Below are positions 52,524 through 63,704 of a DNA stretch of 64,000 bases, in pieces. The notes beneath the pieces were generated by a model. It was not told where the DNA came from, did no database searches, and saw only the letters and a list, made by a program, of their open reading frames with translations. The stretch covers positions 124,001-188,000 of the forward strand of contig JAKSKX010000002.1 of assembly GCA_024401535.1 (NCBI GenBank), in the 5' to 3' direction. The position numbers and the translations under genes are program-made. Origin of the DNA: Paludibacteraceae bacterium (lineage in GTDB: Bacteria > Bacteroidota > Bacteroidia > Bacteroidales > Paludibacteraceae). Each line of letters begins with the position of its first letter. Position 1 is the stretch's first letter.

Positions 52524-52556
52524 CAAATATTGTCGATCATTGACAAGAAAAGAAGC

Positions 52557-54041
52557 ATGTCTAATATGACCATAGAAGATATACAGACACGCAAGGAATC
52601 TCAGACATTCGATTGCAAAAGCTTACAAATTGAACCAAAAGCATTGGCCATCCCTATCGTCGCAATGGCAAATGCCGATGGTGGTGTGCTTGCCATTGGT
52701 GTCTCTGATAAGACCCGCAGAATTGAAGGCGTCAACGGAAACGAGGAACGTCTGAACGAAATCCTCAGAGTACCTTTCGACTTCTGCAATCCATCGGTGA
52801 GAGTGCGTTGCGAATATCTGCCATGCACCGATCATGAAGGTCATGACAACCGAATCCTGCTCATGCACATTCCGGCCAGCGGTCAGCTGCACACCAATCA
52901 GGCCGATGAATGCTTTATGCGTGTGGGCGATAAGAGCAAGAAGTTAAATTTCGAGGAACGCATGCAGCTGCTCTATGACAAAGGCGAACGCTACTATGAA
53001 GACAAGGATGTCTATGGAGCGACGATCAATGACGTTGACATGAATCTTGTCATCGACTATGTGAATGTCATCGACTACGGCAAGTCGGCCATGGAGTATC
53101 TCCTTGAGAACAACGATTTCGTAACCGAGGCAGACGGTAAGCAGAAGATCAGCACCGCCTGCATTCTCCTCTTCGGCAAGAACCCGCAACGCTTTTTCCC
53201 TCGTGCCCGCACCCGCTTCATTCGCTATGAGGGAACAGAGGAAAAGGTCGGTACCGAGATGAATGTTGTGAAGGATGTGACGTTCGAGGGAGCCATTTTG
53301 CAACAGGTGCAACGCACCATTGACTATCTTGAGACACAAGTACGCGAACACACTTATCTTGGACAAGATGGACTCTTTGTAACCAATCGAAACTACCCAA
53401 AGTTCGCCATTCAAGAGATGGTAGTCAATAGCTGCTGTCATAGAGCATATAACATCAAGGGTACGGAGATACAGATCAAGATGTTCGATGACCGACTTGT
53501 CTTCGAGACCCCAGGAGACCTCCCTGGACTTGTTCGTCCCGACAACATCCGTCATACCCACTTCTCTCGCAACCCCAAGATTGCTCAGTACCTCAAAGCC
53601 TACAAGTACGTCAAGGAGTTTGGCGAGGGCATTGATCGTATCTGCAACGAACTTGAAACAAGAGGTTCCGCCATTCCTACATTCCACATAAACGCATTTA
53701 TACTGAAAGCGACTTTGAAGGCAGAATGGACAACAGAGAAAGAACTAAGCCCTCTAAGCACTAGCCAGAACGGTGATACGGTAAATGTCCCAGAAAATGA
53801 TACGATAAACTTGTCGCAACTCACTGAAAGACAAGTAAAGATTTATCATATCATAAAAGGTGATACGATAAATGTCCCGATAAATGTCCCGATAAATGCA
53901 TCTGGTCTTGCAACAATATTTAATGTTTCCGAGAAGACTATCAAACGCGATCTCTACATCCTTCGAGATTTGAATCTCATCAAGTATGTAGGAAGCAACA
54001 AGACTGGACATTGGGAGGCCGTGAATCTCATAAAGAAATAG
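52557..54041 (+). CDS. AlbA_2/Schlafen-type ATP-binding putative regulator
   Basis: 494 residues from ATG 52557. N-terminal AlbA_2 (Schlafen-like) domain: FDCKSLQI near 22, AIPIVAMANADGGVLAIGVSD. Middle region with an ATPase-like (HATPase_c_4) segment around NYPKFAIQEMVVNSCCHRAY and FETPGDLPGLV. C-terminal winged helix (TERQVKIYHII; FNVSEKTIKRDLYIL). Proteins of this build are putative transcription regulators or helicase-like DNA binders, common in defence islands. A 12-bp microrepeat (GATAAATGTCCC) within 53869-53898 gives the repeated INVP linker. Likely controls the island, by inference only. Confidence 0.8.
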   Translation: MSNMTIEDIQTRKESQTFDCKSLQIEPKALAIPIVAMANADGGVLAIGVSDKTRRIEGVNGNEERLNEILRVPFDFCNPSVRVRCEYLPCTDHEGHDNRILLMHIPASGQLHTNQADECFMRVGDKSKKLNFEERMQLLYDKGERYYEDKDVYGATINDVDMNLVIDYVNVIDYGKSAMEYLLENNDFVTEADGKQKISTACILLFGKNPQRFFPRARTRFIRYEGTEEKVGTEMNVVKDVTFEGAILQQVQRTIDYLETQVREHTYLGQDGLFVTNRNYPKFAIQEMVVNSCCHRAYNIKGTEIQIKMFDDRLVFETPGDLPGLVRPDNIRHTHFSRNPKIAQYLKAYKYVKEFGEGIDRICNELETRGSAIPTFHINAFILKATLKAEWTTEKELSPLSTSQNGDTVNVPENDTINLSQLTERQVKIYHIIKGDTINVPINVPINASGLATIFNVSEKTIKRDLYILRDLNLIKYVGSNKTGHWEAVNLIKK

Positions 54042-54133: not shown

Positions 54134-55486
54134 ATGAAAGCTGAAATAAAATCAAAACGTGTCCGAGCTATCATAGAGGAACTGAAAGATCAGTACATGG
54201 AGGCAGACAAAAACTGCCGTCCGTGGATTATTGGCTTTTCGGGGGGCAAGGATTCTACAGTTCTGCTGATGCTTACATGGATTGCCATGCTGGAGTTGAG
54301 GGAAGAAGGGCAACCGCTGTACAGACGTGTGTATGTGGTTTGTAATGATACGATGGTAGAGAATCCCGTCATCGAAGAATACGTATCTACCGTACTGCTG
54401 AAGATTGCTGATGCTGCACGTGAGCAGTTGCTTCCGGTGCAAGTGGTGACTACTACGCCACAGCTTGAAGATACTTTTTGGAGTTGTGTTATCGGTAAGG
54501 GCTATCCTGTACCGAACAACTCATTCCGTTTCTGTACGGAGAAGATGAAGATTAAACCTACATCGAAGTTCATCACCGACCAAGTGGTGGCTGATGGTGA
54601 GGCAATCGTGCTTGTGGGTACTCGCTTGACCGAGAGCCAACAGCGTGAACGCAGCATTCGTCGTCATGAAATCAAAGGTCACCGTCTCTCAAAGCACCCA
54701 TTGAATCCAAACACCTTCACATACGCTCCAATCAAGGAACTGATGCTTGAAGAAGTTTGGTGGATTATCAATTCTATTCCTTCACCATGGGGATTCGACA
54801 ACCAAATCCTCTTCAACATCTACCTCGATGCCTCAGCCGATGACTACGAGTGCCCAACAGTAGTGACTGATGATAGTCACCGCAGTTGTGGTCAGAGTCG
54901 TTTCGGTTGCTGGATTTGTACCGTGGTAAAGGAAGACAAGTCAATGTCTTCACTCATCAAGAATGGCGTAGAGTGGATGAAGCCGTTGCTGGAGTTCCGC
55001 GACCGACTTGTTGAGAATCGTAATGTTTCCGAACTCCGTTGCGACACTCGCCGCAATGGTCAGAGAGCTGTGGACGAAACCGGACACAACCTTGGTAACT
55101 ACACCATGGAGTATCGCATACAAATGCTTCGCGAACTCTTGCAGACGCAGAAGACCGTACAGGAAGGACACTCAAGCGTGAACCTCATCACCAGTCAAGA
55201 GCTCATTGCCATTCAGGTAATCTGGTTCCGCGATGGCAACTTCACTACCACCGTCAATGACATTTACAACGAGGTTTACGGCTACAACATCCCGAACCTT
55301 GAAATCGGTTTGCAGGAACGACTCATATTGGAGAAATCATGCATCGACCCTCAGCATTTCCAACTCATTCAAGAACTCCTCGCCCTACAGAAGAGCAAGG
55401 TTCTGTTGATGCGTAAGTTCGGCTTGCAGAATGACATTGAGGAACGATTGGATTCATTCATCAAAGAAAAGGAGGCAGAGGCATGA
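54134..55486 (+). CDS. dndC: DndC, phosphorothioation PAPS-reductase-like ATPase
   Basis: 450 residues. The PP-loop SGGKDST at 36-42 binds ATP to adenylate the DNA backbone before sulfur insertion. A Cys cluster (Cys240, Cys252, Cys259, Cys262 in ECP and CGQSRFGCWIC) fits the 4Fe-4S cluster that relays sulfur. The C-terminal helical tail (FQLIQELLALQKSK...MRKFGL...IEERLDSFIKEK) matters because it reappears as a separate ORF at 58025. Its stop overlaps dndD as ATGA. In Dnd systems sulfur comes from a cysteine desulfurase (DndA), absent from this window; a housekeeping IscS may serve. Confidence 0.93.
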   Translation: MKAEIKSKRVRAIIEELKDQYMEADKNCRPWIIGFSGGKDSTVLLMLTWIAMLELREEGQPLYRRVYVVCNDTMVENPVIEEYVSTVLLKIADAAREQLLPVQVVTTTPQLEDTFWSCVIGKGYPVPNNSFRFCTEKMKIKPTSKFITDQVVADGEAIVLVGTRLTESQQRERSIRRHEIKGHRLSKHPLNPNTFTYAPIKELMLEEVWWIINSIPSPWGFDNQILFNIYLDASADDYECPTVVTDDSHRSCGQSRFGCWICTVVKEDKSMSSLIKNGVEWMKPLLEFRDRLVENRNVSELRCDTRRNGQRAVDETGHNLGNYTMEYRIQMLRELLQTQKTVQEGHSSVNLITSQELIAIQVIWFRDGNFTTTVNDIYNEVYGYNIPNLEIGLQERLILEKSCIDPQHFQLIQELLALQKSKVLLMRKFGLQNDIEERLDSFIKEKEAEA

Positions 55487-57603
55487 TCATACAGAGCATT
55501 ACATTGAACAACTACCGCCTCTACGAAGGCGTTAATACAATAAAGTTCTCACTCGACGAAGAGAAGAACGTACACCTCATCTGTGGTGAGAATGGCTTTG
55601 GCAAGACAACATTCCTGCACTCGCTGCTTTGGTGTCTGTATGGCCGTTTTGTGGGTGACGTGCCTGCATCAGGACAGGATGCCAACGCCAATTACAATGC
55701 ACTCCTTCAGAGCAACCTGAACATCAATGCCGCCAAGCGTTATCAGTCAAATCTTACTCCAGAGATAACGGCACTCATCAAGAAACATGGCTACACCAAC
55801 GAACTTGAAGAGATTAAGAAAGATTCGGTTTACAGCGTGACCATCCGTTTCTCCGAGCTTGCCATTCCTGCTATTCCCTGCCGTGTGATTGACGTAATCC
55901 GCAGCTATGACTCCATTCTCCAGAAGGAACAGGTGGAGATAATGATTGATGGAGTGCGCAACGAGCTGACCGAAGAAATAGGTCCTGACGTTTTCATCAA
56001 CGACTTTATCCTGAACAAGGACATTGCTCGCCTTTTCTTCTTCGACTCAGAGGAAGTTGTTGAACTTGCAGAGACAGGAACCATTGCCGACCGCCGTAGA
56101 TTGAGCCGTGCATACGAGGAGGTTCTTGGCATCCGCAAGTACGAGGATTTGAAGTCAAATCTTGAGAGTCTTCGCCTTCGATACCGCAAGAAGTCACGCG
56201 ACATTGGATTGCGTCACGAACTGGAGAAACTCCTTGTACAGAAGGAAGAAGCTGACAAGGAAGCAGCTGAAATTGAGGAGCAAATTCAAAAACTTAACGA
56301 CAAGCTGACAACGCTTCGCCAGGATGACACCTCCCTACAAGCAGAACTCTCTCGCGAAGGTAGTAGCGTTAAGTCAGAAGAAATGAATCGTGTAAAGTTG
56401 CTCATTGAAACCTGCAAGAAAAACGATGTGGAAATGAAGAGCAAGCTAAAGCAATTCATTGACTATGCACCATTCGCCATTGCAGGAAACGTGTTTGCTC
56501 AGGCATACGAACTTGCCAAAGCAGATCATGACACCATCAGTAGCAACAACGCTTCGATTGCACAGAACCATGTCCTTGACTCGCTGAACAAGGAACTTCA
56601 TGCCATGCTTGCATCCCTGCCAATCGAAAAGAAGAGCAAGGACGAAGCCACTAAGAAACTTGATAGTATTGTAGCAAAATATCGTGGTGAGAAATCCGAC
56701 CTCGAACCACAGATGATACTCAGTGATGACGACTATGCAGAAATTGAAGCCGTCTATAATAGCATTACAACGACTTACCGCATAGAGTTTGAAACGCTGG
56801 CAGAGAACTACCGCAAGAACAAAGTAATGCTGGAGCGCAATTCTCGCCGACTCTCAAATATGCACAGTAAGGAAAGCGACGAGGTTATCAAGCGTCTTCG
56901 CACAAAGAAAAACGAAACGGAGAAAGCTATTCAAGAAACTGATGATGCAATCCGCAAACTGCATGAGAAGACAGGCGAATCAAATCTGAAACTCGCTACA
57001 CTAGAAAAGCAGATTAAGGATTTGAGCAAGCGTGTAAGCGTGGACGATGCAGACGAGAAAAAGGATGCACTTGCCAACCAGCTTATAAGCGAACTTGACA
57101 CGTTCCTTTCGTCTTTGAAGCAAAACAAGAAGTCGTCTTTGGAACGCAGAATCAAGACAACGCTCAATTCGCTCATGCACAAGGAGGACTTCATTGGTCG
57201 AGTTGAAGTTACTATTGATGCCGATGCGATGGACATTTTGTTGTTTACTCCTGAGGGCGACGAAATAGACAAGGAAAAGCTCTCAAAGGGTGAGAAACAG
57301 CTTTATGCAACTTCTCTTCTGAAATCCCTTGTAGATGAGAGCGGCATCAAGTTCCCTGTGTTCATCGACTCGCCTTTGCAGAAGTTCGACAAGAGTCACA
57401 GCTCAAAGATTATTACAGAGTTCTACCCGTCAATCTCTAAACAGGTTGTTCTCTTCCCGCTGCTACACAAGGAACTGACTAAGCCTGAGATGGACATGAT
57501 GATTCCATTTGTGGGTAGTGCCACACTCATTACGAATGATACTACACGTTCTGGATTCAAGGCAGCGAAGGCAGAGCATTTGTTTTACGATTATAACTAC
57601 TAA
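55483..57603 (+). CDS. dndD: DndD, SMC/Rad50-like ATPase (first copy)
   Basis: 706 residues. Walker A GENGFGKT at 35-42, a long central coiled coil (about 235-330 and 480-530), ABC signature LSKGEKQ near 600, and Walker B PVFIDSPLQKFD near 625. DndD hydrolyses ATP to open or nick DNA for DndC/DndE during phosphorothioation. Coupled to dndC by ATGA, and dndE starts 6 bp after its stop. Paralogue of the protein at 58204, with the Walker A at the same residue numbers; composition is medium GC, unlike that copy. Confidence 0.9.
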   Translation: MIIQSITLNNYRLYEGVNTIKFSLDEEKNVHLICGENGFGKTTFLHSLLWCLYGRFVGDVPASGQDANANYNALLQSNLNINAAKRYQSNLTPEITALIKKHGYTNELEEIKKDSVYSVTIRFSELAIPAIPCRVIDVIRSYDSILQKEQVEIMIDGVRNELTEEIGPDVFINDFILNKDIARLFFFDSEEVVELAETGTIADRRRLSRAYEEVLGIRKYEDLKSNLESLRLRYRKKSRDIGLRHELEKLLVQKEEADKEAAEIEEQIQKLNDKLTTLRQDDTSLQAELSREGSSVKSEEMNRVKLLIETCKKNDVEMKSKLKQFIDYAPFAIAGNVFAQAYELAKADHDTISSNNASIAQNHVLDSLNKELHAMLASLPIEKKSKDEATKKLDSIVAKYRGEKSDLEPQMILSDDDYAEIEAVYNSITTTYRIEFETLAENYRKNKVMLERNSRRLSNMHSKESDEVIKRLRTKKNETEKAIQETDDAIRKLHEKTGESNLKLATLEKQIKDLSKRVSVDDADEKKDALANQLISELDTFLSSLKQNKKSSLERRIKTTLNSLMHKEDFIGRVEVTIDADAMDILLFTPEGDEIDKEKLSKGEKQLYATSLLKSLVDESGIKFPVFIDSPLQKFDKSHSSKIITEFYPSISKQVVLFPLLHKELTKPEMDMMIPFVGSATLITNDTTRSGFKAAKAEHLFYDYNY

Positions 57604-57609
57604 ACGAGT

Positions 57610-58011
57610 ATGATAGCAATAGCACAGATAAAGACAAGCGCCAAGAACAAGGAACTTGTAACACAGCTGACCCGCAAGTTTGCTTTGGGAGCAGAGAATG
57701 TGATTGCACGTATCGCCATCGCATACTCGCTGAAATGTGGAGTAAAGTTCCAACCAACCGACATCAAGGATGCAGGAGGTAAAGAGTATAGCAAGAGTGT
57801 GCTCTTTGGTAATCTCTTCCCCTTGTACGTAGCCATGGTGTGTGCTCACTACGGCATCAAGGACACGGACAAAGACCTTCCTCGCTACTTCAAGATGCAC
57901 CTTGATGATGGTTTGGAACGTATTGACGCAGACGTAAAAGACAATCCCAACCTAGTAGGTTTCGACTACTTGTTTGACCGCATACACGAAGGATTAATTT
58001 CATTTGACTAA
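57610..58011 (+). CDS. dndE: DndE, DNA-binding phosphorothioation subunit (first copy)
   Basis: 133 residues, standard DndE size. The opening KTSAKNKELVTQLTRKF and ENVIARIAIAYSL, and the FPLYVAMVCAHYGI core, match the helical DndE fold that binds nicked DNA as a tetramer. It has a paralogue as the N-terminal domain of the protein at 60310. Confidence 0.88.
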   Translation: MIAIAQIKTSAKNKELVTQLTRKFALGAENVIARIAIAYSLKCGVKFQPTDIKDAGGKEYSKSVLFGNLFPLYVAMVCAHYGIKDTDKDLPRYFKMHLDDGLERIDADVKDNPNLVGFDYLFDRIHEGLISFD

Positions 58012-58024
58012 TACATTCATAGAT

Positions 58025-58207
58025 ATGGAAGATAATAAAGAATTTCAACTCCTAAGGGAAATTTGCAAAGATAACGAAAACAAATTTTACCTTGTGTCAG
58101 ATTTGTTAGAGATTCAACGAAGCAAAGCCTTGATGAACCGCAAACGAGGTCTTAATGACGAAATTGAATCAAAAGTTGAGTCTTACATAAAAAAGAAGTT
58201 ATTATGA
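58025..58207 (+). pseudogene. dndC C-terminal remnant (60-residue ORF)
   Basis: 60 residues from ATG 58025. The sequence aligns with the last ~50 residues of the DndC at 54134: LLEIQRSKALMNRKRGL against LLALQKSKVLLMRKFGL, then IESKVESYIKKK against IEERLDSFIKEK. It lacks the PP-loop and all Fe-S cysteines. It overlaps the second dndD by ATGA, exactly as full-length dndC overlaps the first dndD. The ORF is intact and may still be translated to couple dndD2. AT-rich, unlike dndE 14 bp upstream. Confidence 0.75.
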
Positions 58208-60297
58208 AGATCAAAGAATTAGAACTGAATAATTTCAGAATTTATAAGGGTAGAAATACTATTGATCTTACTACATCAGAATCACGTAACATCATTATTA
58301 TTAGTGGTGAAAATGGATTTGGTAAGACTACTTTTCTCATGTCTATCGTTTGGTGTCTTTATGGCAAGCAAATGGAACAAGTTGATGAAATGTATAAAAA
58401 AGAGATAAATGCTAAAAGAGGTGGCTATAATGGATACATGAGTTCATGCCTTAATAAAGCGGCTGCGGCTAATTCTACGACAAAGTTTTCTGTATCACTA
58501 ACACTTACCGACTTAGATCTGCCGGGTGAGTTGGAATGTAGTGAGATTAAAATAACTCGTTCGTATGATACTAAAAATCCCAATGGTGATGATCTACTTA
58601 TATTATTTGATGGCAAACAAATAGATGAAGTTTTTCCTACTGTACCTAAAGAAGAACGAATCGAAGCAGAAGAGTTCTTCATTAGAGAACGTATTATGCC
58701 TATAGAAATTGCTAAGTTTTTCTTTTTTGATGCCGAACGTATTGTGGCTTATGCCGAACTTGATTCGTCTGAACAACAGAAAAGATTAGCAAGTGCGTAT
58801 TCGCAAGTTTTAGGTATTCAAAAATACATATCATTAAAGGAAACTCTGTCTGCTATCAAAGACGACTATCGTAAGAAGGGCGTAAACTCAAAAGAAAGAG
58901 ATGAATTTAACAAGCTCTCTTTAGAGATAGAAAATTCCGATGCAATTAAGAATGAATTACAAAATAAGATTTCCGAGATAAAAGTTGATATAAAGAATTA
59001 CCAAGACGAATCCGACACGATACAAGAGCGTCTTTTGCTTGAAGGGAATACAATGACACAAGAGCAATTAGATGAATATCGTAACAAACAGAAAGGATTC
59101 AAAGAGGAAATGGACAATTCTCAGGTTGGCCTCAAAGATTTGTATAACTATATTCCGTTTGGATTGTCTGGCGAACTATTTGCTCAATTAGTTGATCAGG
59201 TTAAGAAGGAAGTGGATTATCGTCAAAAGAAAATTCAAATAGATATAGCAGAAGAAAAAACAAACGATTTACTGAATGATTTAGATGACGAAAGCAGAGA
59301 TGTTAGCTTCCCTATAGATCGTAAGGTTAGACGTTTCTATGAAGATATAGTAAAAAAACTGATAAAAAAACATTTCTATGATACTTCAGATGAAGGTGAC
59401 GAAGACTTTGAAGAGTTACATGGATTAACAGATGTCCAATCCAACACATTGCTGTCTTTTGTGTCAAAAATTAAAGGCGCGCAGAAAGATTTTACGCGAC
59501 TTTATGATAGTTATAATCGTGCGAAACGAGAGTATTCTTTAATTGAACAACAGATTCGTGATGCCGAAGCACGTTCTGAAAGTCCATTTATTGTTGAACT
59601 TAGAGAAAAGAAGCAAGAGTTAGATGAATTAATCGCTGATCTACAACAAGAGCTTATTGACAAATCAGCAGAGTTGAAGCAAAAGTCAGATCAAGTAATT
59701 GCAAATAAAAAGCAGAAAGAACTACTCGCTTCCAAGATTCAAGTGTCTGATCAATTCAAAGAGAAAGACCGTGCCATGACTGATTTGATTCAGTCAGTTG
59801 ATGCATTCCTTATACGATTCAAGGAAGATAGAAAACAGTCATTGCAAAAGAGGATCCTTATAAATCTTCAACGTCTGTTACACAAAACGGACTTAGTTTC
59901 TAATGTCCAGGTTTTCATACAAAATGATATGGTTGACATCACATTAATTGACAAATCTAACAAGAAACAAGATATTAGTGATTTGTCTAATGGTGAGAAA
60001 CAGATGTTTTCCACAGCCCTTTTAAGTGCGTTAGTCGAAGAGACAGGTCTTCAATTCCCTGTATTTATTGATAGTCCTCTTCAGAAATTCGATAAAAATC
60101 ACTCAAAAAACATCTTAGAGAAGTTCTATCCGAATGTGTCAAAGCAAGTCGTACTATTCCCGTTGATTTACAAAGAATTAACAGAAAAAGAGTATCTTCT
60201 TATTAAAGATAGGACGGAGAAGACAATCATAATACAAAATGAAGATGACGGTTCTCATTTTGTTCCAATAAGCAAAGATGACTTGTTTTACGAATAA
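58204..60297 (+). CDS. DndD-like SMC ATPase (second copy)
   Basis: 697 residues. Walker A GENGFGKT at 35-42, coiled coils in the centre, LSNGEKQ signature near 596, Walker B PVFIDSPLQKFDKNHS near 620. By eye about a third of positions match the first DndD, best at both ATPase halves, so it is an old paralogue rather than a recent copy. GC is far lower (about a third) than dndD1. A heteromer with the first DndD, or work with the fused DndE downstream, are the alternatives. Loosely, a RecN/AAA_23-type ATPase by family. Confidence 0.85.
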   Translation: MKIKELELNNFRIYKGRNTIDLTTSESRNIIIISGENGFGKTTFLMSIVWCLYGKQMEQVDEMYKKEINAKRGGYNGYMSSCLNKAAAANSTTKFSVSLTLTDLDLPGELECSEIKITRSYDTKNPNGDDLLILFDGKQIDEVFPTVPKEERIEAEEFFIRERIMPIEIAKFFFFDAERIVAYAELDSSEQQKRLASAYSQVLGIQKYISLKETLSAIKDDYRKKGVNSKERDEFNKLSLEIENSDAIKNELQNKISEIKVDIKNYQDESDTIQERLLLEGNTMTQEQLDEYRNKQKGFKEEMDNSQVGLKDLYNYIPFGLSGELFAQLVDQVKKEVDYRQKKIQIDIAEEKTNDLLNDLDDESRDVSFPIDRKVRRFYEDIVKKLIKKHFYDTSDEGDEDFEELHGLTDVQSNTLLSFVSKIKGAQKDFTRLYDSYNRAKREYSLIEQQIRDAEARSESPFIVELREKKQELDELIADLQQELIDKSAELKQKSDQVIANKKQKELLASKIQVSDQFKEKDRAMTDLIQSVDAFLIRFKEDRKQSLQKRILINLQRLLHKTDLVSNVQVFIQNDMVDITLIDKSNKKQDISDLSNGEKQMFSTALLSALVEETGLQFPVFIDSPLQKFDKNHSKNILEKFYPNVSKQVVLFPLIYKELTEKEYLLIKDRTEKTIIIQNEDDGSHFVPISKDDLFYE

Positions 60298-60309
60298 ATC
60301 TAGAGTAAT

Positions 60310-61890
60310 ATGCAGATTAATATTAAAACATCAGAGGAAAATCAGAAAGTAATTACTGATTTGACAAGAAAGCTACCAGGCGATACAAAGGAGAATGTAA
60401 TCGCACGTATTGCTTTGGGTTATTCTCTTTCCAATGGCAAAAGATTCAAGAGAGAAGAGTTTGATACTTATGATTCTCAGGGAAAGGAGTATAAAGATCA
60501 CATTCTGTTTGATGCAGAATATAAAGATTTTTATATCGCTTTAGTCTGCCAAGCTTATCAAATTAAAAGCAATGATGAGGATTTAGTAAAACTCATCAAA
60601 CTACATATCGACCATGGTCTTCAAATGATTAGTAGATATTTTGAAGAACATGAAGACTGTACATTTTTTGAACTGCTTATGAATGGATTGGATAAGGGGG
60701 TCAATGCATTAGAAGATATTGACGTTCCATTTGACCCTGCCGTCAATTCAAACCAGCATATTAGCAAAGCGTATTTCTCTGAACCAATCAATATAAAAAT
60801 TGGTTATAACCCAGAAACCAAAAGCGAAGTGTATTTTTGCTTCAATAACACAAAAATATACAATAATCCCCACATTGCAGTTGCGGGAAAATCAGGTTCA
60901 GGAAAGACTCAATTCGCACAGGAATTTATGTCTCAATTACATGATGTGACTAAGAATAAGACAAATTTCCTATTTCTTGATTTTAAAGGAATTAAGGATG
61001 AAGACCGTAAAAAGATGCAAGGATTCTTTGATTCCACAGAAACGTCTTTCGTAAATGCCCCAGATGTGCCGTTTCCATTGAATCCACTCACTTTTATCGA
61101 TAACCTTAATCAAAAAAACAAGCTTATTGGCATCAATAAGTTTGTAGATATTATCGCAAGCTATTCAAATATAGGAAAAAAACAGCAGCAGACTCTAAAA
61201 GATGCTGTTGTAGAAGCATTTGGTGCAAAAATAGATAACAAATATCCTTCACTAAAGGAAGTTAATGAAATACTTTTAGACAGATATGGCGAAAAACGAG
61301 ATATTCTCACAGAAATAATGGGACGTCTTAGCGAATATGAATTATTTGAATCTAATGTTGAAGACCCAAGTTATTTCTTGAACCATAATTATTATCTCTC
61401 TTTGTCTGGTGATTTGGACAAGACCGTTAGATTCACATCTGTCTTTCTAATTATAAATTATATATTTAATGTGTTTTCCAATATGGGAAATGCAGATGTT
61501 GTAAACGGACACCAGAGCATGCGCTATGTATTGATGATTGATGAAGCTCATGATTTATTTAGAGAAAAAAAATCATTGGAGATTCTAGAAGTTATCCTTA
61601 GAAAGATGCGCTCTTATGGAGTTTCTGTGTTCTTACTGTCGCAAGGAATTTCTGAATATAACCAAGGAACATTTGACTTCTCGCAAGAATGTGAAACATC
61701 TTTTTTATTGCCAATTAACGATTTAGGTAACACTAAGGCAATTAACAAATTCTTAGGTCTGAATGATAAAGAAAGTACAAGGGCGATGAGAAATATTGAG
61801 AAACTCGATAATGGATTTGCAATTTCAAATGTAAAGGAATATCCCAAAACCGATGTTTTTGAAGTCGTTCAATATTGGAAAGAACACTAG
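60310..61890 (+). CDS. DndE fused to a HerA/FtsK-like ATPase
   Basis: 526 residues. Residues 1-130 are a second DndE domain (TSEENQKVITDLTRKL, ENVIARIALGYSLSNGKRF, FYIALVCQAYQI). From 165 on there is a HerA/VirB4-type ATPase: Walker A GKSGSGKT at 193-200, LFLDFKG, Walker B VLMIDEAHDLF near 415, SVFLLSQG as the sensor/Gln motif. HerA-type rings pump or translocate DNA. The fusion puts DNA-nick binding and a motor in one chain. I infer a role in moving along DNA to place sulfur or to police unmodified DNA. Confidence 0.85.
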   Translation: MQINIKTSEENQKVITDLTRKLPGDTKENVIARIALGYSLSNGKRFKREEFDTYDSQGKEYKDHILFDAEYKDFYIALVCQAYQIKSNDEDLVKLIKLHIDHGLQMISRYFEEHEDCTFFELLMNGLDKGVNALEDIDVPFDPAVNSNQHISKAYFSEPINIKIGYNPETKSEVYFCFNNTKIYNNPHIAVAGKSGSGKTQFAQEFMSQLHDVTKNKTNFLFLDFKGIKDEDRKKMQGFFDSTETSFVNAPDVPFPLNPLTFIDNLNQKNKLIGINKFVDIIASYSNIGKKQQQTLKDAVVEAFGAKIDNKYPSLKEVNEILLDRYGEKRDILTEIMGRLSEYELFESNVEDPSYFLNHNYYLSLSGDLDKTVRFTSVFLIINYIFNVFSNMGNADVVNGHQSMRYVLMIDEAHDLFREKKSLEILEVILRKMRSYGVSVFLLSQGISEYNQGTFDFSQECETSFLLPINDLGNTKAINKFLGLNDKESTRAMRNIEKLDNGFAISNVKEYPKTDVFEVVQYWKEH

Positions 61891-61947
61891 TAAGTAATAA
61901 TATAATAAAAGTGTAATAAGAGTTAGGTATCGCTTAACAATTAAAGA

Positions 61948-62433
61948 ATGGAAAATAGTAGAAACATTTTTATAGAGTGGTTTAATAACCTTAGAGAACC
62001 TTGGAAAGATTATGTTTTTACAGGTTATTTTGTTGGCTTTGTAGTTCTTGTTGGACTGGTAGGTGTATATCCTTCAATTATTGAATATATTAATAATGAT
62101 TCTGATTCAAATCATAGTTTCTGGCCTGTGATACAAAATATATTGACATACTCTATTGCATTGGCAATTCCTGCAGCAGTGTCTATATTATGTTCCAAAA
62201 ACAAGACAAACAAACAAGCAAGAATAATATTTACAGTATTGCTATTTATTTTACTTCCAATAGCTCTTTGCATTCTTGAGTATATTTACAAGAAGTATAT
62301 CTGTGCATTTATATGTCTGTTTCTTTCTTGGATAGTGTGGGTTATCGGCAACCATGGTAATCCTCAATATCATGACGGACAATATGGGAAATCGACTTTA
62401 GATAATGCAAAACGGATGACAGTTGGATGGTAA
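61948..62433 (+). CDS. Four-TM membrane protein within the dnd locus
   Basis: 161 residues. Hydrophobic helices at about 18-44, 66-84, 91-114 and 115-134, soluble ends. The C-terminal tail has NHGNPQYHDGQYG. No family recognised. AT-rich like its neighbours. It lies between the DndE-ATPase and DndB, with its stop overlapping an upstream candidate dndB start. A membrane effector or an anchor for the machinery are possible. Confidence 0.6.
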   Translation: MENSRNIFIEWFNNLREPWKDYVFTGYFVGFVVLVGLVGVYPSIIEYINNDSDSNHSFWPVIQNILTYSIALAIPAAVSILCSKNKTNKQARIIFTVLLFILLPIALCILEYIYKKYICAFICLFLSWIVWVIGNHGNPQYHDGQYGKSTLDNAKRMTVGW

Positions 62434-62450
62434 TAAAAAATATAAATATA

Positions 62451-63704
62451 ATGAATACTATAAAAGGCTTTTTGGTTTCTCAAAATAATCAAGATTTTAT
62501 TGTAGGAAAAACTACAATAAAAGAATTACTTACGTATACAAAGTACACAGAACGATTAATCATTGGATATGATGAGGAAGATAAACCTATATATAATAAT
62601 CATATTCAAAGGAAAGTTGAGGAAAGTAGAATCTCCAAAATATCTGACTTCTTAATATTTGACGATATGGCTACATTCCCCACAAATATTGTATTGGGCA
62701 TTCCTTCTTCTGTCATAGTATCACAAAACTGTAATGAAGAAGGCGTAATAACATTAACTCTAGATCCTAAAGTTGGAGAAGAAATTGAAAAGGCACAAAA
62801 TGGAGATGAATCTGCTGATATTTTTGTTACAATTATTGATGGACAGCATAGAATAGCGGGTATAGAAAGAGCCATTGAAGTGTTAAAAAAATATATATCT
62901 AAAAACACAGATGATACAGAGAAATATAGAAAAAAACTAGAGAATTTATATAATATAGATTTAGTGATTTCATGTTTTATTGATAAGAGTATAGAATATG
63001 AAGCAATGATATTCTCAACTATCAACAGAACACAGAAAAAGGTTTCACAAGATCTTGTACATAGTTTGTTTGGTATAACAGAAAATGACTCCCCATATAA
63101 AACCGGATTAGAAATTACCCTTGCTTTAAACGCACATCCTAATTCTCCGTTTTATAAAAGGATAAAGTTGTATGGTGGATCTATTGAAGGAGTTCTTCCT
63201 CCTTTATCTCAAACAACAATGATAAAGAACATTGTTGGCTTTATTTCAGAATCATTAAAAGAAGCTGAAAATGACAGATTTCGAAAGAGATCAGAACTCC
63301 AAAAGCAAAGAGGTAATAAAGTGTTACCTTTTAGGTCGTTTTATGCCAACAATAATGATAAAGCAATTGCTGATTGTCTTTTCTATTATTTTTCATCTAT
63401 CAAAGAAACATTTCCAGATTTATGGGAATATGATTTCAAAGATAAGCCCAAAAATGTATTACAATCTACAGTTGGATTCGAAGCGTTAATGAAATTATTA
63501 AGAGATATAATTGATAGATATGGAATAAACTCGTTCTATAAAGGGTGTTTTGATCATTATGTATCAAATATATCGAAACTACCTCTTTCTGATGTTAATG
63601 AGTTTCCTATGACAACAAAAGGAAAAAACATCATGTATAATGCTATGTATGTAGAAATTTTTCATAAAGACCCATCTGCAATTGCTAAAGCCAAAGAGTT
63701 ATAG
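62451..63704 (+). CDS. dndB: DndB-like DGQHR-domain protein
   Basis: 417 residues from ATG 62451, the start that matches the usual MxxIKGxxxxQ opening. An alternative ATG at 62427 adds eight residues and overlaps the upstream gene. The family motif DGQHR lies at 130-134 in IIDGQHRIAGIERA. In Dnd systems DndB binds DNA and ATP and represses the cluster, limiting modification density. Here it sits last instead of first. DGQHR proteins also occur in other modification systems, so it could be a relative, not strict DndB. Confidence 0.82.
   Translation: MNTIKGFLVSQNNQDFIVGKTTIKELLTYTKYTERLIIGYDEEDKPIYNNHIQRKVEESRISKISDFLIFDDMATFPTNIVLGIPSSVIVSQNCNEEGVITLTLDPKVGEEIEKAQNGDESADIFVTIIDGQHRIAGIERAIEVLKKYISKNTDDTEKYRKKLENLYNIDLVISCFIDKSIEYEAMIFSTINRTQKKVSQDLVHSLFGITENDSPYKTGLEITLALNAHPNSPFYKRIKLYGGSIEGVLPPLSQTTMIKNIVGFISESLKEAENDRFRKRSELQKQRGNKVLPFRSFYANNNDKAIADCLFYYFSSIKETFPDLWEYDFKDKPKNVLQSTVGFEALMKLLRDIIDRYGINSFYKGCFDHYVSNISKLPLSDVNEFPMTTKGKNIMYNAMYVEIFHKDPSAIAKAKEL

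What the first reader, a model, noticed from the sequence alone, without database searches (positions are those of the whole stretch)
54134..63704. Mosaic double phosphorothioation locus: dndC-D-E followed by dndC'-D2-E2::ATPase
Seen: two DndD proteins and two DndE domains in one locus, with a 60-residue ORF between them that aligns to the end of DndC and lacks its active site. Each dndC end overlaps its dndD by ATGA. The first set is medium GC, the second strongly AT-rich, with the change at about 58015. Known: standard Dnd clusters carry single dndC, D and E. Inferred: a complete dndCDE cassette was inserted into, or recombined with, a resident dndC-D-E::ATPase cluster and destroyed its dndC, leaving one DndC to serve two DndD/DndE pairs. 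It may also be a real two-paralogue system.
Basis: partly seen in the sequence, partly recalled or inferred. Interest (0 to 1): 0.9.

Follow-up and report, generated by a model that had tools for sequence, protein, structure and literature searches.

The report
Hidden docking gene inside dndC
A DNA-sulphur defence locus was spliced from two related systems, and the scrap left at the seam looks not like junk but like a small working gene that many relatives seem to keep hidden inside a larger one.

Summary
The locus is a mosaic of two Dnd lineages: dndC-dndD1-dndE1 ("type A"), then C'-dndD2-dndE::herA from a "type B" system whose relatives read dndC-dndD-dndE::herA (72 of 72 loci with enough upstream sequence; 0 of 80 have the window's order). 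The seam is at the dndE1 stop codon, about 15 nt before the C' ATG.

C' is probably more than a remnant. It is the DndD-docking tail of DndC and a member by score of the free-standing family Sp-DndD. Its start matches a Met present in 74 of 74 type-B DndC proteins, and the five codons before that Met are the most synonymously constrained in dndC (rank 1 of about 470 windows in five overlapping subsets; 0 of 20,000 draws).

I infer that type-B dndC holds a nested in-frame gene for a free docking protein, and that the mosaic replaced DndC but kept this gene. C' would dock on DndD2, giving a sulphur-free DndD2-DndE::HerA effector beside the type-A writer. Translation, binding and defence are not shown; a misassembly is not excluded.

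The parts
54134..55486 (+). dndC (type A): sulfurtransferase with its own docking tail; no Met at the nested-start position
   Evidence: TIGR03183 397.7 bits; 76-80% identical to DndC of L084-L087, at most 61% to type B; tail scores 65.4 bits with the tail model; Met column is a gap
55483..57603 (+). dndD1 (type A ABC ATPase)
   Evidence: 51-53% identical to DndD of four type-A loci; TIGR03185 231.2 bits; PADLOC PbeC 379, DndD 271 bits
57610..58011 (+). dndE1 (stand-alone DndE, full length 133 aa)
   Evidence: PF08870 82.8 bits; aligns end to end with L086/L087 DndE except for its last residues
58009..58012 (.). mosaic seam: type-B dndC homology starts about here, at the dndE1 stop codon
   Evidence: column -6 is Tyr/Phe in 74 of 74 type-B DndC but Thr in the window; columns -2 and -1 agree; GC step
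58010..58024 (+). 15-nt leader kept from the resident dndC, equivalent in position to the five most constrained codons of type-B dndC
58025..58207 (+). C': free-standing DndD-docking protein (Sp-DndD), 60 aa; start codon = the invariant nested Met of type-B DndC
   Evidence: PF20306 28.5 bits, cut-off 27.2; DndC C-terminus in TIGR03183/NF005316; own-genome tail search 83.1 bits, C' being one of the 66 rows of that model
58204..60297 (+). dndD2 (type B ABC ATPase), start overlaps the C' stop by ATGA
   Evidence: TIGR03185 257.1 bits; PADLOC PbeC 549, DndD 286 bits; the 26 nearest type-B DndD are 45-50% identical
60310..61890 (+). dndE::herA (DndE domain fused to a HerA/FtsK-type ATPase, DndH-like)
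   Evidence: PF08870 63.9 bits; PADLOC DndH 101 bits over residues 152-515; PDB DptH 7es4_A E 2.2e-12; 70% identical to L095
61948..62433 (+). p161, putative membrane protein (inferred from weak transporter-like matches) that accompanies some type-B loci
   Evidence: no Pfam match over cut-off, none in NCBIfam or PADLOC; homologue between E::HerA and DGQHR in L095, L100, L104, L113, L117, L156, L166
62427..63704 (+). DGQHR/DndB-superfamily protein, type-B accessory
   Evidence: TIGR03187 119.6 bits, PF14072 47.4 bits; homologues downstream of E::HerA in several type-B loci

Best explanation
The locus is a mosaic of two Dnd systems. A type-A dndC-dndD-dndE writer cassette replaced the 5' part of a resident type-B dndC and ends at its own dndE stop codon. 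The rest of the resident system was kept: docking tail, dndD2, dndE::herA, p161, DGQHR. The kept tail is a functional free-standing gene, because in type-B systems the 3' end of dndC already contains a nested in-frame gene that starts at an invariant internal Met. Proposed working: DndC carries sulphur to DndD1-DndE1 through its own fused tail and phosphorothioates DNA. C' occupies the DndC-docking site of DndD2 without bringing a sulphur enzyme, so DndD2-DndE::HerA works as a scanning or translocating effector rather than as a writer. Shown by sequence: the mosaic, the identity of C', the invariant Met and the codon constraint before it. Inferred: internal translation in type B, binding of C' to DndD2, and the effector role.
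For: Mosaic: 72 of 72 E::HerA loci with enough upstream sequence read C-D-E::HerA; 0 of 80 have the window order. Own DndC is type A along its length; E1 is full length. Identity of C': PF20306 over its cut-off; 55 of 66 docking tails (C' included) match PF20306 at E up to 0.1, next family 12 of 66; hhalign of tails against free small proteins E 3.7e-8 and 9.2e-9; conversely the DndC model NF005316 matches six of the seven small proteins scanned at positions 397-461, E 3.3e-6 to 0.095. Docking: DndC residues 433-482 contact DndD in an AlphaFold3 model and L458D/E462A/R471A breaks DndC-DndD pull-down (PMC12193691, passages); these align to C' L27, Q31, K40, nearly invariant in 65 tails. Nested start: Met in 74 of 74; the window before it is rank 1 of 464-474 windows in five overlapping subsets, e.g. 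32 disjoint pairs observed 0.88, expected 0.59; 0 of 20,000 random draws reach it, 26 of 32 pairs positive; Lys AAA 53 of 53 there vs 0.77 elsewhere, Asp GAT 0.96 vs 0.70. Controls: windows with z of 4 or more in dndC, dndD and dndE::herA are this site, the end of dndD (overlapping the next start) and the start and end of dndE::herA; six other conserved internal Met columns give z -1.4 to +0.7 against 4.3 here. Met-to-Cys spacing is 18-19 residues in 73 type-B genes and 19, 18, 20 in the free proteins L056, L057, L187. No faster divergence: C' vs type-B tails 45.3% identity; 42.9, sd 5.2, in 814 type-B pairs of equal DndD identity. Natural parallel: Methylorubrum extorquens AM1 has a 380-aa DndC, an in-frame stop, then a separate 70-aa tail-like gene, dndD and dndE::herA.
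Against: The six codons after the nested Met are not constrained once amino acids are matched in four of five subsets (ranks 123 of 473, 155 of 469, 258 of 472, 87 of 464; 19 of 474 in disjoint pairs). Upstream A-richness is ordinary (percentile 0.58), and weak mRNA structure is not centred on the site (0.80 at the site, 0.86 30 nt upstream). Codon preferences there are not all A/T: Ser TCC 0.33 vs 0.08 and Ile ATC 0.30 vs 0.14. The spacing match fails for L059 (13), L191 (22) and C' itself (14). The Methylorubrum tail has no PF20306 match and only E 0.0019 with the tail model. The E. coli tail alone scores 0.5 bits with the tail model. One PF20306 small protein (L188) has no DndD found near it. 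Only one copy of C' exists, so selection on C' itself cannot be measured; a recent event would also leave no decay. The nested Met is absent in type A and, at that column, in the canonical DndC proteins aligned. The effector role is inference.
Confidence: 0.66

Rival explanations
1. C' is a non-functional relic of a truncated dndC, untranslated or useless, not yet decayed; DndD2-DndE::HerA either uses the type-A DndC or is dead.
For: Truncation of a resident dndC is shown; the mosaic was seen only in this genome; a recent event needs no selection.
Against: The seam spares the constrained 15-nt leader and the nested start; divergence equals that of tails still fused to DndC; free tails of the same family lie directly before dndD in 9 of 14 small-protein loci.
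Confidence: 0.2
2. One type-A DndC serves both DndD1-DndE1 and DndD2-DndE::HerA, giving two phosphorothioate motifs.
For: Only one dndC found in the genome; the two tails are alike (22 of 54 identical).
Against: Own DndC and its tail are type A; D2 comes with its own docking protein. Cross-docking is untested.
Confidence: 0.2
3. The invariant Met and the codon constraint in type-B dndC mark something other than a start: an internal promoter or binding site for dndD-dndE::herA, or a structurally required Met in a special linker.
For: Position -2 is Leu, Ile, Phe, Met or Val in 73 of 74, so Leu-Asp-Met could be structural; a weaker second window at about -16 appears in one subset; codons after the Met are not constrained; A-richness and folding are not distinctive.
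Against: The constraint is confined to the codons just before an ATG, and real starts of these genes give the same kind of signal; six other conserved Met columns give none; three free homologues start at the same spacing.
Confidence: 0.2
4. The mosaic is an assembly or binning artefact joining two systems.
For: The genome is a 69-contig draft of 91.5% completeness; no relative seen has the same order.
Against: Reading frames stay intact across the seam, which falls at a stop codon and just before a conserved leader; the locus lies inside a 259-kb contig with ordinary-looking chromosomal genes on both sides, judged by eye.
Confidence: 0.06
5. A stable two-paralogue Dnd system with a fixed C-D1-E1-C'-D2-E2 order.
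For: Tandem DndD/CxC pairs are common in general (PMC10853773, section 16).
Against: 0 of 80 named loci, and none of the six close E::HerA loci from the family search of 358 genomes (annotated), show this order.
Confidence: 0.03

Closest known systems
Dnd clusters with DndE fused to HerA/FtsK beside a DndD-related ABC ATPase (Rakesh, Aravind, Krishnan 2024, PMC10853773, 'clade-3' HerA/FtsK)
   Same: dndD2 and dndE::herA of the window fit this description by architecture; clade membership on their tree was not tested
   Different: The dndC of relatives is cut to its tail; a nested start in dndC is not mentioned in the sections read (14, 16, 22, 24) or in the passages found with the word DndC
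Sp-DndD (Pfam PF20306), small protein of certain Dnd systems
   Same: C' scores over the family cut-off and lies directly before a dndD
   Different: Pfam describes it only as a small Dnd protein; here it is shown to be homologous to the DndC C-terminal docking tail and, in type B, to be part of dndC
DndCDEA-PbeABCD (Xiong 2019, PMC6459918, passages)
   Same: Writer DndCDE followed by small protein, ABC ATPase, DndE; the type-A locus L087 continues with PbeA and a PbeC-like gene; PADLOC's best model for both window ATPases is PbeC
   Different: No PbeA in this genome beyond generic helicase matches; DndE is fused to HerA; Halorubrum PbeB belongs to PF20304 Sp-CxC, not to Sp-DndD
Cas11b made by internal in-frame translation of cas8b (PMC11899642, abstract and outline seen)
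   Same: A small subunit of a defence complex encoded inside a larger subunit's gene, from an internal Met
   Different: Unrelated proteins; there translation was shown, here it is inferred from conservation
Canonical DndCDE (E. coli B7A; PMC12193691, passages)
   Same: DndC-D-E with a C-terminal DndD-docking region in DndC
   Different: No free tail seen directly beside dndC-dndD and no Met at the nested column in the canonical DndC proteins aligned; Hymenobacter has a Met about two residues away

Membership tests
Sp-DndD (PF20306) | score over Pfam's gathering cut-off | tested here: met
   28.5 vs 27.2 bits
Sp-DndD (PF20306) | small separate gene directly upstream of a dndD-like ATPase gene | tested here: met
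   60 aa, ATGA overlap with dndD2
Sp-DndD (PF20306) | translated product that binds the ATPase | not testable with these tools
   no expression or interaction data
DndC (applied to C') | PP-loop ATP pyrophosphatase domain and Fe-S cysteines | tested here: not met
   C' covers only positions 396-445 of 447 of TIGR03183
DndCDE phosphorothioation system (first set) | DndC, DndD and DndE with family-level scores in one operon | tested here: inconclusive
   DndC over its cut-off and DndE1 over the Pfam cut-off; DndD1 and DndE1 below the TIGR equivalog cut-offs (231.2 vs 245.85; 54.6 vs 71.85); PADLOC ranks PbeC above DndD for DndD1
DndCDE phosphorothioation system (first set) | dedicated cysteine desulfurase DndA | tested here: not met
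   only a general desulfurase at 134 bits, cut-off 480, on another contig; housekeeping desulfurases are reported to substitute for DndA (PMC10853773, passage)
DndE::HerA clade | DndE fused to a HerA/FtsK ATPase next to a DndD-like ATPase | tested here: met
DndE::HerA clade (type B) | full dndC directly upstream of dndD | tested here: not met
   replaced by C' in the window; a dndC is there in 72 of 72 assessable relatives, partial in two
PbeABCD | PbeA (HKD nuclease-SF2 helicase) | tested here: not met
   best own-genome match 42 bits, as generic helicases give in 13 of 14 control genomes; PbeA in L087 scores 763 bits
DndFGH | DndF | tested here: inconclusive
   no match with TIGR03238 (taken as DndF from memory), but the control rang nowhere
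Nested in-frame gene (Cas11-like arrangement) in type-B dndC | conserved internal start with constrained leader | tested here: met
Nested in-frame gene (Cas11-like arrangement) in type-B dndC | protein product detected | not testable with these tools
   needs ribosome profiling or proteomics

The most novel reading that the evidence does not exclude
Across the mostly Bacteroidota DndE::HerA clade (type B), dndC encodes two proteins: the sulfurtransferase and, from a nested in-frame start, a free copy of its DndD-docking tail. This free tail is the same protein as the Sp-DndD small proteins of methylase-linked and some Pbe-linked DndD systems. It acts as the adaptor that turns a DndD-DndE core from writer into effector by filling the DndC site. 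The window is a natural experiment in which dndC was swapped and only the nested gene was kept.
Probability: 0.55. Interest if true: 0.82.

Novelty: new variant of a known kind. Interest (0 to 1): 0.72.

Why it matters
The small proteins of Dnd-like systems had no assigned molecular role in what I read; a 2024 study (PMC10853773) calls the CxC-system one rapidly evolving and mostly disordered and suggests a negative regulator. Linking Sp-DndD to the DndC tail gives a concrete, testable role: it docks on the ATPase where DndC docks. A nested gene in dndC would mean that dndC deletions or expression constructs in such systems remove or add two proteins at once. It would add another defence machinery, besides CRISPR Cascade, in which a small subunit is made from inside a large one. 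The mosaic shows how writer and effector halves of Dnd systems are shuffled.

Tried and rejected
Rejected: (1) C' as an unrelated ORF: alignment and models say otherwise. (2) Own dndC as a type A/type B chimera: best identity to type A is equal to or higher than to type B in all 50-residue windows. (3) Equating C' with PbeB in general: Halorubrum PbeB is PF20304, not PF20306, and has no meaningful score with the tail model; Natribaculum breve does have an Sp-DndD protein in that slot. (4) L068 and L069, PF20306 hits below cut-off inside 576-580 aa proteins with no Dnd gene found: taken as false and dropped. (5) Raw codon identity downstream of the nested Met looked raised but vanished after amino-acid matching in four of five subsets. 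(6) A-richness and mRNA folding as evidence for a start: not convincing. (7) Plasmids: near search no match; protein search for E::HerA 13 records, all under 60% identity. Viral contigs for E::HerA: none confirmed. (8) PDB by sequence: no match for DndC, DndD2 or C'. (9) A consensus promoter scan found no excess: 33 sites, 30.1 expected.

Rows dropped before counts: of 80 named loci, 8 end at a contig edge before dndC. DndC proteins outside 425-505 aa were left out of the 74 (L145, 345 aa; L154, 188 aa at a contig edge). L055 has frameshifts, was not mended and is not in the 74.
Full report
Anatomy. The order is dndC, dndD1, dndE1, a 60-codon ORF (C'), dndD2, dndE fused to a HerA/FtsK ATPase, a 161-aa putative membrane protein and a DGQHR/DndB-superfamily protein. 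PADLOC ranks PbeC above DndD for both ATPases. Downstream follow two Fic-family genes with an ORF6N-like gene between them and, further on, what looks by eye like a tyrosine integrase, which suggests a genomic island. GC falls from 0.453 in dndE1 to 0.317 in C'. One DndC and two DndD were found in the genome.

Two lineages. I call type B the systems with DndE fused to HerA and a dndC before dndD. A scan of one genome per species (84,980 genomes) with an alignment of eight DndE::HerA proteins confirmed 131 relatives, of which the best 80 were kept; 51 were not seen. In 72 of these 80 the sequence reaches far enough upstream, and in all 72 a dndC lies before the dndD (partial in L145 and L154; dndD itself is broken in a few); in the other 8 the contig ends first. 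None of the 80 has the window's order. The nearest relatives are about 70% identical in DndE::HerA. I call type A the relatives of dndC-dndD1-dndE1. Four such loci (L084-L087) and a fifth (L186) read dndC-dndD-dndE with a free DndE. The window's DndC is 76-80% identical to the DndC of L084-L087 and at most 61% to any type-B DndC, without a break along its length. In L087 the type-A operon continues with PbeA (763 bits) and a PbeC-like ATPase; L084 continues differently. In the window those genes are missing, and the best PbeA match in the whole genome is 42 bits, of the kind that 13 of 14 control genomes also give. So the window joins a type-A writer to the rear part of a type-B system, in the slot where L087 carries a Pbe module.

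The seam. dndE1 is full length (133 aa, as in L086 and L087), and only its last few residues depart from them. In the reading frame of C', homology to type-B DndC runs upstream of the ATG: in 74 type-B DndC proteins the column of the C' start is Met in 74, column -2 is Leu, Ile, Phe, Met or Val in 73, and column -1 is Asp in 40 and Asn in 17; the window reads Ile-Asp-Met. Column -6 is Tyr or Phe in 74 of 74 but Thr in the window. The resident dndC therefore begins at about 58010, at the dndE1 stop codon, 15 nt before the C' ATG.

What C' is. C' matches Pfam Sp-DndD (28.5 bits, cut-off 27.2) and the last 50 positions of the DndC models. The two are the same domain. Of 66 tails (65 type-B DndC tails plus C'), 55 match Sp-DndD at E up to 0.1, and the next family matches 12. 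Profile comparison of the tails with 12 and with 4 free small proteins gave E 3.7e-8 and 9.2e-9. A tail model built without C' placed the small proteins of seven loci as the top seven of 1,301 ORFs from 14 loci, three of them above the inclusion threshold; 12 of the 14 small proteins were listed at E up to 10. In the reverse direction the DndC model NF005316 matched six of the seven small proteins scanned, at positions 397-461, with E from 3.3e-6 to 0.095 (for L191, the 0.095 case, another model scored slightly better); the miss was Halorubrum PbeB, which belongs to the different family PF20304. Of the 14 loci, the small protein lies within about 15 nt of a downstream dndD-like gene in nine (L056, L057, L059, L061, L063, L065, L066, L067, L187), 0.6-0.9 kb upstream of one in four (L058, L060, L062, L064), and no DndD was found in one (L188). 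In E. coli B7A the same region of DndC docks on DndD: an AlphaFold3 model puts residues 433-482 on the DndD globular domain, and L458D/E462A/R471A breaks the pull-down (PMC12193691, passages). An E. coli DndC with those residues at those numbers (L190) aligns them to Leu27, Gln31 and Lys40 of C'. Among 65 tails these are Leu in 63, Gln in 62 and Lys or Arg in 65. The E. coli tail alone scores only 0.5 bits with the type-B tail model, so this mapping rests on a gapless alignment.

A nested start. An invariant Met in a variable linker invited a test for internal translation. For pairs of type-B dndC genes I compared codon identity at conserved amino acids with an expectation matched for amino acid and for pair. 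The window of codons just before the nested Met ranked first of 464-474 windows in all five subsets, which overlap: all pairs of at least 70% identity (551 pairs), three sets drawn from 65 dereplicated genes, and 32 disjoint pairs (observed 0.88, expected 0.59). In 20,000 random placements over the disjoint pairs none reached the observed excess; 26 of 32 pairs were positive. Lys is AAA in 53 of 53 cases there, 0.77 elsewhere; Asp is GAT in 0.96, 0.70 elsewhere; G at the third position is 0.05 against 0.12; but Ser TCC and Ile ATC are also commoner there than elsewhere. As a control the same scan was run on dndC, dndD and dndE::herA. Windows with z of 4 or more are the nested site, the last codons of dndD, and the start and end of dndE::herA; dndC's own start reaches 3.2. 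Other internal windows stay at 3.2 or below. Six other internal Met columns conserved in at least 90% give z between -1.4 and +0.7, against 4.3. Against this reading: the codons after the Met are not constrained in four of five subsets, and A-richness and mRNA structure are not distinctive. The Met is absent in type A and, at that column, in the canonical DndC proteins aligned, although Hymenobacter has a Met about two residues away.

Free tails elsewhere. Of nine relatives of DndE::HerA matched along most of their length in the class search (395 genomes), seven are type B and two (L056, L057) have a separate small-protein gene before dndD. L187, L059 and Methylorubrum extorquens AM1 (L191) also have one; L187 and L059 were found through the small protein itself, so they are not independent of it. 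In Methylorubrum the split is plain: a 380-aa DndC, an in-frame stop, a G-rich stretch, then a 70-aa gene in the same frame; that tail has no PF20306 match and E 0.0019 with the tail model. In L056, L057 and L187 the start lies 18-20 residues from the conserved Cys, as the nested Met does in 73 type-B genes (18 or 19); it is 13 in L059, 22 in L191 and 14 in C', which has a short deletion. In eight DndCDE loci without the DndE::HerA fusion (L084-L087, L186, L190, L193, L195) the two models found no tail outside DndC in the stretch held, which in L085 and L186 ends soon after dndE. The pattern suggests, on small numbers, that a free docking tail goes with DndD-DndE cores coupled to a motor.

No sign of decay. 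C' is on average 45.3% identical to the tails of its 26 nearest type-B systems. Type-B pairs of the same DndD divergence (814 pairs) average 42.9%, sd 5.2. A recent event would look the same.

Interpretation. The writer is DndC-DndD1-DndE1. The most likely role of C' is to fill the DndC-docking site of DndD2, so that DndD2-DndE::HerA acts as a scanning motor that responds to modification state, in line with the DNA-scanning role proposed for DndD-DndE cores (PMC10853773, section 24 read). Whether DndC also docks on DndD2 is open. The steps shown are the mosaic, the homology, the invariant Met and the codon constraint. Translation, binding and function are inferred.

Literature. Tandem DndD and CxC systems, and DndE::HerA next to a DndD-like ATPase, are known (PMC10853773, sections 14, 16, 22 and 24 read, plus passages). 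PbeABCD was seen in passages (PMC6459918). DndC-DndD binding at near equal molar ratio was seen in passages (PMC4611135). Cas11b from an internal start was seen as abstract and outline (PMC11899642). I found no report of a nested start in dndC or of the tail-Sp-DndD homology; searches were made, in an open-access library only, so other papers may hold it.

Noticed in passing
L191 4977-9959 (Methylorubrum extorquens AM1 megaplasmid): dndC appears naturally split into a 380-aa catalytic gene and a separate 70-aa docking-tail-like gene, followed by dndD and dndE::herA.
   Followed up: partly
L061, L063-L067: Loci that read methylase - helicase/restriction subunit - Sp-DndD - DndD-like ATPase - HerA ATPase or part of it; Type III methylase and restriction subunit were confirmed by PADLOC in L063 only, the rest by eye.
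   Followed up: partly
L059 5903-17223: HsdM- and HsdS-like genes (by eye), Sp-DndD, DndD, DndE::HerA, a 299-aa gene and a HamB (Hachiman) helicase of 1054 bits in one run.
   Followed up: no
L084 8226-10493; L056 5984-8200; L057 5750-7954: Genes of about 735-755 aa directly next to Dnd genes; those in L084 and L056 have RNA-polymerase alpha-CTD-like and sigma region-4-like segments, L057 was not scanned; function unknown.
   Followed up: no
L194 15202-15423 and L196 7731-7922 (haloarchaeal plasmids): The small protein before the CxC/PbeC-like ATPase is Sp-DndD (PF20306) in Natribaculum breve but Sp-CxC (PF20304) in Halorubrum trapanicum: two families fill the same slot.
   Followed up: partly
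L087 4720-4929: A 69-aa ORF without a Pfam match sits between PbeA and the PbeC-like gene of a type-A locus, the PbeB position.
   Followed up: no
window 63756 to L003 16839, then L004 6067-7320: Downstream of the locus: Fic (PADLOC candidate PDC-S72), an ORF6N-like gene, a second Fic/Doc-family gene, then what looks by eye like a tyrosine integrase, suggesting a mobile island.
   Followed up: partly
L256 5899-6132 (IMG/VR contig): A lone 77-aa ORF with a good docking-tail match (3.8e-13) in a viral contig; no other Dnd query hit there and no Pfam match.
   Followed up: no
L055 (G356): dndC, dndD and dndE::herA are broken into several frames in a single-contig genome, perhaps sequencing error.
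   Followed up: no
window 52530-54041: Schlafen/AlbA_2 protein upstream of dndC, 59% identical to one downstream of the type-B locus L113 (307 of 524); AlbA genes recur around these loci.
   Followed up: no
L188 9250-9525 (G984): A clear Sp-DndD-like 91-aa ORF with no DndD-like gene found in the 19 kb held.
   Followed up: no
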